Shown here: positions 2,716-3,954 of the stretch, piece after piece
How positions within the stretch are numbered: position 1 is the stretch's first letter
Layout: every line of letters begins with the position of its first letter
Origin: Oscillospiraceae bacterium Zagget12
Lineage (GTDB): Bacteria > Bacillota > Clostridia > UBA1381
Assembly (NCBI GenBank): GCA_001941225.1
Contig: MSHM01000005.1
Coordinates: forward strand, 1-64,000
Reading direction: 5' to 3'
Length of the DNA: 64,000 nucleotides
The notes under the pieces: generated by a model
What the model was told of the DNA's origin: nothing
The model's database searches: none
What the model saw: the letters and a program-made list of their open reading frames with translations, nothing else
Position numbers and translations under genes: made by a program

Positions 2716-3278
2716 TGTCAAAGTATTTATATTGTATTGTCGGGAAGTCGGGTTCCGGCAAAGACAGTATTGTAAACTATCTGTGCGACCGATACGGCTA
2801 TACAAAGGTTCAGTCATACACAACACGCAAGCCGAGAGCAGACCCGCAGGATAAATATAATCATACGTTCATGACGGAGCTTGATTTCCAAAGAGATAAA
2901 TATGATGATAAGGTTATAGCCTCTACATATTTTGACGGACATCATTATTGGACTACCCCCGATATGTTGGATAATGCCGATTTCTATGTAATAGATATTC
3001 AAGGTCTTAAAGAGCTTAAACGAAAGTATAAGCATAGAAAAATTATTTCAATATATATTGACGCAAGGGACGATATAAGAATCAGACGTATGCGAAAAAG
3101 GGGAGAGTTACCGTCCGAGATAGGAAAGCGATTTAAGAACGATAAGGAAAAATTTTCCGAAGCGGACAGCTACGATTTTGATTGGGCGGTTAAAAATAAC
3201 GGCAGATTCGGTATTAAGCGGATATGCAGAAAGATAAACAGGGCAATTAAAAATAACGAAAGGACGTATTGCATTTGA
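2715..3278 (+). CDS. guanylate kinase-like nucleoside monophosphate kinase
   Basis: P-loop GKSGSGKDSI, TTRKPR, GHHYWTT, DIQGL. Confidence 0.8.
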   Translation: MSKYLYCIVGKSGSGKDSIVNYLCDRYGYTKVQSYTTRKPRADPQDKYNHTFMTELDFQRDKYDDKVIASTYFDGHHYWTTPDMLDNADFYVIDIQGLKELKRKYKHRKIISIYIDARDDIRIRRMRKRGELPSEIGKRFKNDKEKFSEADSYDFDWAVKNNGRFGIKRICRKINRAIKNNERTYCI

Positions 3279-3406
3279 GGAATCTTCAAATTTACCTCGC
3301 CGGAGGTATGCAAAATCTATCATTGGAAGAGCAAACCGGTTGGAGAGACTATATCAAGGACACTTTGCCCAATTCATCAAATAAAAACCTTGTTATCATA
3401 GCTCAA
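3269..3406 (+). pseudogene. 5' fragment of nucleoside 2-deoxyribosyltransferase/DUF4406-like gene
   Basis: LQIYLAGGMQNLSLEEQTGWRDYIKDTLP matches the N-terminus of that family; remainder lost where structured element begins. Confidence 0.55.
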
Positions 3407-3678
3407 TTAGGTGTTCTCGAAATGGAGTATAGCGACCTAAAGAAGATTTCATCGGAACGAGGTACGGGCAGTTTGGGAAGTAGTGGAAAATAATATAAGG
3501 ATAAGTAAATAGTACAATCGGCGGTTGGACAAAGATAAAGTCGGTCAAGAAAATAATCCGTGCCGTTAGGTAACGTCAAGGAAAAATTGATATTCCGAGG
3601 TGGGTAATCGGTTCCGATATGTGGAGTATCTGAACCACGCAGCACACTTGCAGTAGGTGAAAAGCCTTGCACCGCCGT
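3407..3678 (+). ncRNA. candidate large structured RNA, HEARO/IsrB omega-RNA-like
   Basis: By-eye helices: TTAGGT/ACCTAA (3407-3412/3435-3440), GGTACGG/CCGTGCC (3461-3467/3558-3564), GTCAA/TTGAT (3575-3579/3587-3591), CCGA/TCGG (3595-3598/3608-3611), GGTTC.GATA/TATC.GAACC (3610-3636), and pseudoknot-forming CGGCGGT/ACCGCCG (3519-3525/3672-3678); no convincing ORF. Confidence 0.6.
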
Positions 3679-3720
3679 TTATATATAAACAATTTTAATT
3701 ACCGAGAAAGGAGATAAGAC

Positions 3721-3954
3721 TTGAAAGAAGAAACAATATACATTTGTGAAACTTGCGGCAAAAGAATGAAAAATCAGTATGATATGAAACTCCACGAAGC
3801 CGCCCATTTTGACAACACACCCGAGCAATATCATAAGCGGATGGAGCTGCAAAACGAGGTAGGTCAAGCAGCTATCGCATACAGCAGCGCGGTAAAGCGT
3901 TTGGCGGATTTTGAAAAAGACAATATAAACTTTACGGAGGATGACGATGAATAG
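3721..3954 (+). CDS. small C2H2-like zinc finger protein
   Basis: ICETCGKRMKNQYDMKLHEAAHF; good SD (gaaaggag). Confidence 0.6.
   Translation: MKEETIYICETCGKRMKNQYDMKLHEAAHFDNTPEQYHKRMELQNEVGQAAIAYSSAVKRLADFEKDNINFTEDDDE

What the first reader, a model, noticed from the sequence alone, without database searches (positions are those of the whole stretch)
3380..3680. ORF-free ~270-nt pseudoknotted RNA-like element interrupting a deoxyribosyltransferase gene (HEARO/IsrB omega-RNA candidate)
Seen directly: from ~3407 to 3678 there is no credible gene, but a dense set of complementary segments. They are TTAGGT/ACCTAA, GGTACGG/CCGTGCC (extendable by AAC/GTT), GTCAA/TTGAT, CCGA/TCGG, a 9-bp GGTTCcGATA/TATCtGAACC hairpin, and a long-range CGGCGGT/ACCGCCG. 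The last crosses the GGTACGG/CCGTGCC helix, so a pseudoknot is predicted. The element starts exactly where the upstream ORF (IYLAGGMQNLSLEEQTGWRDYIKD, deoxyribosyltransferase-like) loses family resemblance. Established: HEARO RNAs are ~300-nt, pseudoknotted, often occur without an ORF, sit inside IS200/IS605-like mobile elements, and act as IsrB guide RNAs. Inference: this could be a non-autonomous HEARO/omega-RNA, with the flanking sequence just 5' of ~3407 acting as guide. It could also be a new large ncRNA class.
Basis: partly seen in the sequence, partly recalled or inferred. Interest (0 to 1): 0.78.

Follow-up and report, generated by a model that had tools for sequence, protein, structure and literature searches.

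The report
New phage-borne structured RNA family
A 159-base stretch at one end of a prophage encodes a folded, non-coding RNA that recurs in at least six other phages and matches no catalogued RNA family; what it does is unknown, and it is not the CRISPR-like guide RNA first suspected.

Summary
Positions 3389-3493 are not RNA: they encode the C-terminal tail (motif V) of a dUTPase, fused in frame to a 5' fragment resembling a deoxyribosyltransferase gene. The RNA proper is 3519-3677 (+).

Six homologues turned up in other phages or prophages (Monoglobus MAG, Eubacterium ruminantium ATCC 17233, rumen, gut, marine and one further viral contig; 115-290 nt). On seven sequences, 21 pairs are 99.3% paired and 13 show changes on both sides (slid controls 34-46%).

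No Rfam family matches (E<=10 for the window, E<=1 for five homologues). In at least five of seven loci the RNA fills the gap between two co-directional phage genes, often near nucleotide-metabolism genes. No protein partner is shared.

Best guess: a cis-acting or processed intercistronic RNA of phage transcripts, mechanism undetermined. Two copies 98% identical inside have different yet still paired P1 stems, which hints at transfer of the RNA as a unit.

The parts
3519..3677 (+). structured RNA, whole element (159 nt, closing helix to closing helix)
   Evidence: covariance models R1 86.5 bits and R2 78.1 bits with default filters; an unfiltered scan recovered only 3557-3679 plus P2 as separate hits; homologues
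3519..3525 (+). P1 5' strand CGGCGGT
   Evidence: 7 of 7 pairs have changes on both sides across 7 sequences
3671..3677 (+). P1 3' strand ACCGCCG
3528..3542 (+). P2 hairpin GAC-AAAGATAAA-GTC
   Evidence: 3 of 3 pairs with changes on both sides; loop conserved
3547..3555 (+). conserved A-rich motif AAGA(A/C)AATA
   Evidence: alignment A4; divergent only in the Monoglobus copy
3600..3603 (+). P4 5' strand GTGG
3635..3638 (+). P4 3' strand CCAC
   Evidence: 2 of 4 pairs with changes on both sides
3650..3670 (+). P5 hairpin GCAgtAGGTGAAAAGCCTTGC, near-invariant 3' hairpin
   Evidence: 17-18 nt identical in all seven members; most members were found by searching for this sequence, but L009 was found by blastn without it
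3269..3493 (+). upstream chimeric ORF: deoxyribosyltransferase-like N-terminus joined at about 3389-3407 to a dUTPase C-terminal tail; not part of the RNA
3721..3954 (+). downstream 77-aa zinc-finger-like ORF; its ribosome-binding site AAAGGAG starts about 30 nt after P1

Best explanation
A new family of phage-borne structured RNAs. Shown: about 115-290 nt, one strong copy per locus, closed by helix P1, with P2, P4 and P5 inside, carried between genes of co-directional phage or prophage operons. Inferred: it is transcribed as part of the phage polycistronic mRNA and acts there, in cis or after being processed out, as an intercistronic RNA module. It may act on the passing RNA polymerase (as the EAR and put elements do) or on mRNA processing or translation, rather than as an independent small-RNA gene or a nuclease guide.
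For: Seven members, 21 pairs, 99.3% paired, 13 pairs changed on both sides, slid controls 34-46%. Homologues were found through the P5 sequence or blastn, so P1 and P2 pairing are independent checks. Lengths 159, 154, 134, 134, 115, 179, 290 and stops in different frames exclude a conserved ORF. The RNA starts a few to 25 nt after the upstream stop codon in at least five of seven loci, and a gene with its own ribosome-binding site follows within about 20-45 nt in five of seven. No promoter- or terminator-like site above chance around it in the window. Downstream genes are unrelated to each other and no protein is shared by all loci, which argues against a gene-specific riboswitch and against a linked protein partner.
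Against: No expression data. Filling an intergenic gap between co-directional genes is common in compact phage genomes. A promoter inside the upstream gene cannot be excluded. EAR-like action rests on analogy only, and the RNA has no Rfam EAR match. The alignment used for pair counts was anchored by hand, with variable inserts removed, although P1, P2 and P5 are gap-free except for one loop base.
Confidence: 0.42

Rival explanations
1. A stand-alone, trans-acting phage small RNA (for example an RNP scaffold or RNA sponge), expressed from its own promoter or cut out of the mRNA.
For: Self-contained closing stem, conserved loops, no fixed downstream gene or partner.
Against: No terminator or promoter above chance around it in the window; in several loci it begins within a few nt of a stop codon.
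Confidence: 0.25
2. A ribozyme, probably self-cleaving, that processes the phage polycistronic transcript; the near-invariant loops would be the catalytic core and the helices the variable scaffold.
For: Pattern of invariant loops with freely covarying stems; [quoted passage not shown]
Against: No direct evidence; larger than most known self-cleaving ribozymes; no known ribozyme model matches.
Confidence: 0.13
3. A metabolite- or nucleotide-sensing leader (riboswitch-like) for the next gene.
For: A ribosome-binding site follows the RNA closely in five of seven loci; several loci sit among nucleotide-metabolism genes: ThyX, guanylate kinase, dUTPase, NrdD/NrdG.
Against: The downstream genes are unrelated; P1 does not overlap the ribosome-binding site; such genes are typical of early phage regions anyway.
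Confidence: 0.1
4. A guide RNA (omega-RNA-like) of a TnpB, IscB or HNH nuclease acting in cis or trans.
For: One locus has an IS605 TnpB about 1 kb away and one has an HNH endonuclease directly upstream; RAGATH-18, an established TnpB guide RNA (PMC11061315), lies 4 kb from the E. ruminantium copy.
Against: No HEARO or RAGATH match; nucleases present at only some loci and of different types; the TnpB has its own right-end sequence directly after its gene; P1 closes both ends, leaving no obvious guide.
Confidence: 0.06
5. Chance complementarity or a decayed gene, no RNA.
For: Folding energy is not better than shuffles; 3389-3493 is indeed a gene remnant.
Against: Covariation in seven sequences and a near-invariant hairpin; stops and lengths exclude coding.
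Confidence: 0.02

Closest known systems
HEARO / IscB-IsrB omega-RNA (RF02033)
   Same: Structured ncRNA of similar size that can occur without an ORF.
   Different: No sequence or structure match at E<=10; no IscB/IsrB seen near; found in phage operons, not IS200/IS605 elements; no established pseudoknot.
RAGATH RNAs (RAGATH-16, RAGATH-18)
   Same: Structured RNAs found in two of the same phage regions.
   Different: Separate loci and separate structures; RAGATH-18 is an IS607 TnpB guide RNA of ~73 nt (PMC11061315); our RNA matches neither model.
EAR element (RF01735) and HK022 put RNA (from general knowledge)
   Same: Compact structured RNA inside an operon, EAR lying between genes, acting in cis on the passing RNA polymerase; no specific downstream gene needed.
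   Different: No EAR match; antitermination is not shown here; put was not compared.
Riboswitch aptamers
   Same: Multi-branched RNA closed by P1 with conserved loops, often just before a ribosome-binding site.
   Different: No shared regulated gene, no known aptamer match, no expression platform visible.
GOLLD and ROOL large ornate RNAs
   Same: Large structured ncRNAs, some phage-linked, of unresolved function (PMC12286853; general knowledge).
   Different: Those are several times longer; no model match here.

Membership tests
HEARO / omega-RNA (RF02033) | matches the family covariance model | tested here: not met
   no match at gathering threshold nor at E<=10 on 3250-3800; homologues none at E<=1. 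A genome-wide search also found none, but its controls did not ring
HEARO / omega-RNA (RF02033) | IscB/IsrB ORF downstream or IS200/IS605 element around it | tested here: not met
   window neighbours are thyX, guanylate kinase, zinc finger, protease, integrase; Pfam scan of 61 proteins within about 8 kb of all seven loci showed no IscB among the 25 families listed of 39, and one IS605 TnpB at one locus
HEARO / omega-RNA (RF02033) | guide at the 5' end matching a target site | not testable with these tools
   no empty site was available
HEARO / omega-RNA (RF02033) | pseudoknot | tested here: not met
   the proposed crossing helix uses 3461-3467 inside the dUTPase tail and is not part of the conserved element
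RAGATH-18 / IS607 TnpB reRNA | matches RF03064 and lies next to an IS607 TnpB | tested here: not met
   no model match; no TnpB at six of seven loci among the families listed
Group I or group II intron | matches intron models and is flanked by two exons | tested here: not met
   no Rfam match; upstream ORF ends in its own stop 25 nt before the RNA and no second exon follows
EAR antitermination element (RF01735) | matches the family model | tested here: not met
EAR/put-like antitermination (mechanism only) | promotes readthrough of downstream terminators | not testable with these tools
   needs a transcription assay
New structured RNA family | conserved helices supported by compensatory changes in independent homologues | tested here: met
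   homologues

The most novel reading that the evidence does not exclude
A phage RNA that spreads between phages as a unit, its terminal stem P1 belonging to, or being re-formed at, each new site, and whose near-invariant loops form a catalytic or RNA-polymerase-binding core. The E. ruminantium and rumen-phage copies are 120/123 identical inside, but P1 differs at 5 of 12 outer positions while still pairing. Homologous genes of the two phages are only 67-74% identical and the immediate flanks are unrelated. Gene conversion of the interior by ordinary phage recombination is the duller reading of the same fact, and it rests on one pair of sequences.
Probability: 0.12. Interest if true: 0.85.

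Novelty: categorically new. Interest (0 to 1): 0.6.

Why it matters
It adds a covariation-supported RNA family with no entry in Rfam 15, carried by phages of several environments, with one member in a culturable strain (Eubacterium ruminantium ATCC 17233). Phage genomes keep little DNA that does nothing, so an RNA with near-invariant loops, 95% identical between two phages whose shared genes have drifted to about 70%, is likely to be doing something specific or moving. 'Categorically new' is meant at the level of the RNA family; its mode of action may still turn out to be a known one. Candidate RNAs from earlier metagenome surveys that are not in Rfam (for example PMC8040213) could not be compared.

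Tried and rejected
Rejected: HEARO, introns and any Rfam family. Short blastn matches in class-level genomes that I inspected (L010, L012, L014, L015, L017, L018, L022, L024) looked like coding or AT-rich chance. Pattern scans AAGATA...TAGGTGAAAAGCC and GTNGACAAAGATAAAGTC returned chance matches, mostly coding (the latter mainly a VDKDKV peptide), except for known members. Weak model hits at 22-27 bits (L102-L108, L165-L167) lack one or more of P1, P4 and P5 or their conserved loops. T5-like phage hits after thyA (H70-H79) are a gene overlap without P1/P2. The Steffania hit looks like 23S rRNA, a chance match. The antisense 89-aa ORF 3403-3672 is not conserved. A protein partner common to all loci was sought and not found. 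VIPR vrRNAs (PMC13142463) were considered: they are GGY repeats, not this. The family is rare: model searches of 392 class genomes, 250 and 61 relatives of E. ruminantium, 150 relatives of the window genome and 148 of the Monoglobus MAG gave only known members as strong hits. Protein structure prediction was not used: no protein is at issue.

Full report
Observation. The window starts inside an integrated phage: the first 8.5 kb carries thyX, guanylate kinase, an excisionase-like gene and a tyrosine integrase. The finding's upstream ORF (3269-3493, 74 aa) is a chimera. Its C-terminal 32 residues match the end of phage dUTPases, including motif V and the stop codon (47% identity to Bacillus phage FADO; a weaker match to a gut-phage dUTPase; PHROG dUTPase E 0.078). 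The N-terminus resembles a deoxyribosyltransferase only weakly (one tblastn hit, 28.8%, E 0.1). Three of the listed complementary segments (TTAGGT, ACCTAA, GGTACGG) sit in it.

The RNA. Rfam gave nothing at E<=10 and single-sequence folding energy was ordinary. A class-wide genome search then returned one hit in a Monoglobus MAG, which on closer alignment was 64% identical over 210 bases. The two shared an 18-mer, GTAGGTGAAAAGCCTTGC. Scanning for it, and later for a 17-base version, gave five more members: a rumen phage contig (L027), Eubacterium ruminantium ATCC 17233 (L033), a marine contig (L028), a gut contig (L029, completed as L144) and a contig with a 290-nt form (L110). The remaining genome matches to the 18-mer looked like chance, about as many as arithmetic predicts.

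Structure. P1, P2, P4 and P5 were aligned at fixed positions relative to the conserved sequences, with variable inserts removed by hand. On five sequences all 105 cells pair and 11 of 21 pairs change on both sides; on seven, 99.3% of 147 cells pair and 13 pairs change on both sides, against 34-46% paired when slid. Every P1 pair and every P2 pair has compensatory changes. P5 hardly varies; because most members were found with it, its invariance is partly a selection effect, except for the Monoglobus copy found by blastn. The P5 stem has one compensatory change (A-U in L110). A 7-bp match at fixed spacing occurs at 0.0013 of positions in the window, so P1 pairing in six further loci is not chance.

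Not a protein. Lengths of the seven copies differ by amounts not all divisible by three and no frame is open in all.

Context. The RNA is co-directional with the genes on both sides. It begins a few to 25 nt after the upstream stop in at least five loci, and a ribosome-binding site follows closely in five. Downstream genes are a zinc finger, an SSB-like protein, phrog_6721, phrog_7371 and small unknowns: no common target. Nucleotide-metabolism genes are frequent neighbours (thyX, guanylate kinase, dUTPase, NrdD, NrdG). No protein family is shared by all seven neighbourhoods. In the window no promoter or terminator stands out near the RNA, which favours transcription as part of an operon.

An odd fact. 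The rumen-phage and E. ruminantium copies are 94.9% identical over 138 nt, with 120 of 123 identical inside P1. Homologous genes of these phages are 67-74% identical and the immediate flanks are unrelated. P1 is the exception: 5 of 12 outer positions differ (Fisher p = 0.0001) yet the helix is kept. Either the interior was replaced by recombination between conserved ends, or the RNA moved and its stem belongs to the site. One pair of sequences cannot decide.

Known families. HEARO fails on the model, the associated nuclease and the pseudoknot. RAGATH-18 and RAGATH-16 occur elsewhere in two of these phage regions, but the RNA matches neither. RAGATH-18 was shown to be a TnpB guide RNA (PMC11061315), so a guide role is kept as a low-probability rival: one locus has an IS605 TnpB 1 kb away and another an HNH endonuclease directly upstream. 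EAR and put are analogies for a cis mechanism, taken from general knowledge, not memberships.

Limits. Seven sequences; hand-anchored alignment; rough E-values; an unfiltered model scan recovers only the 3' part plus P2, probably because of the long insert; no expression data; metagenomes could not be searched.

Noticed in passing
window 3269-3493: In-frame fusion of a deoxyribosyltransferase-like gene start with a dUTPase end, joint near 3389-3407: probably a recombination or deletion scar in the prophage.
   Followed up: partly
L163:4184-4258 (-), E. ruminantium ATCC 17233 prophage region: RAGATH-18 RNA (74.7 bits), a known IS607 TnpB guide RNA, about 4 kb from the new RNA.
   Followed up: no
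L154:11818-11889 (+), marine contig: RAGATH-16 RNA (72.2 bits) in the same phage contig as the shortest family member.
   Followed up: no
L154:2148-4829 (-): 894-aa protein with an RNA-dependent-RNA-polymerase-like domain (PF05183, as in phage YonO-type RNA polymerases), with a relative in the gut contig G471.
   Followed up: no
L157:1352-2506 (gut contig): IS605-type TnpB about 1 kb upstream of the RNA; an IS200-type Y1 transposase is also among the proteins scanned.
   Followed up: partly
L163:518-1555 (-): HNH endonuclease of free-standing homing type directly upstream of the RNA in E. ruminantium, next to an anaerobic ribonucleotide reductase gene.
   Followed up: partly
L110:3040-3339: The longest copy carries an extra ~150 nt of possible hairpins between P2 and P4, and its P1 is 15 bp; what the insert is was not resolved.
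   Followed up: no
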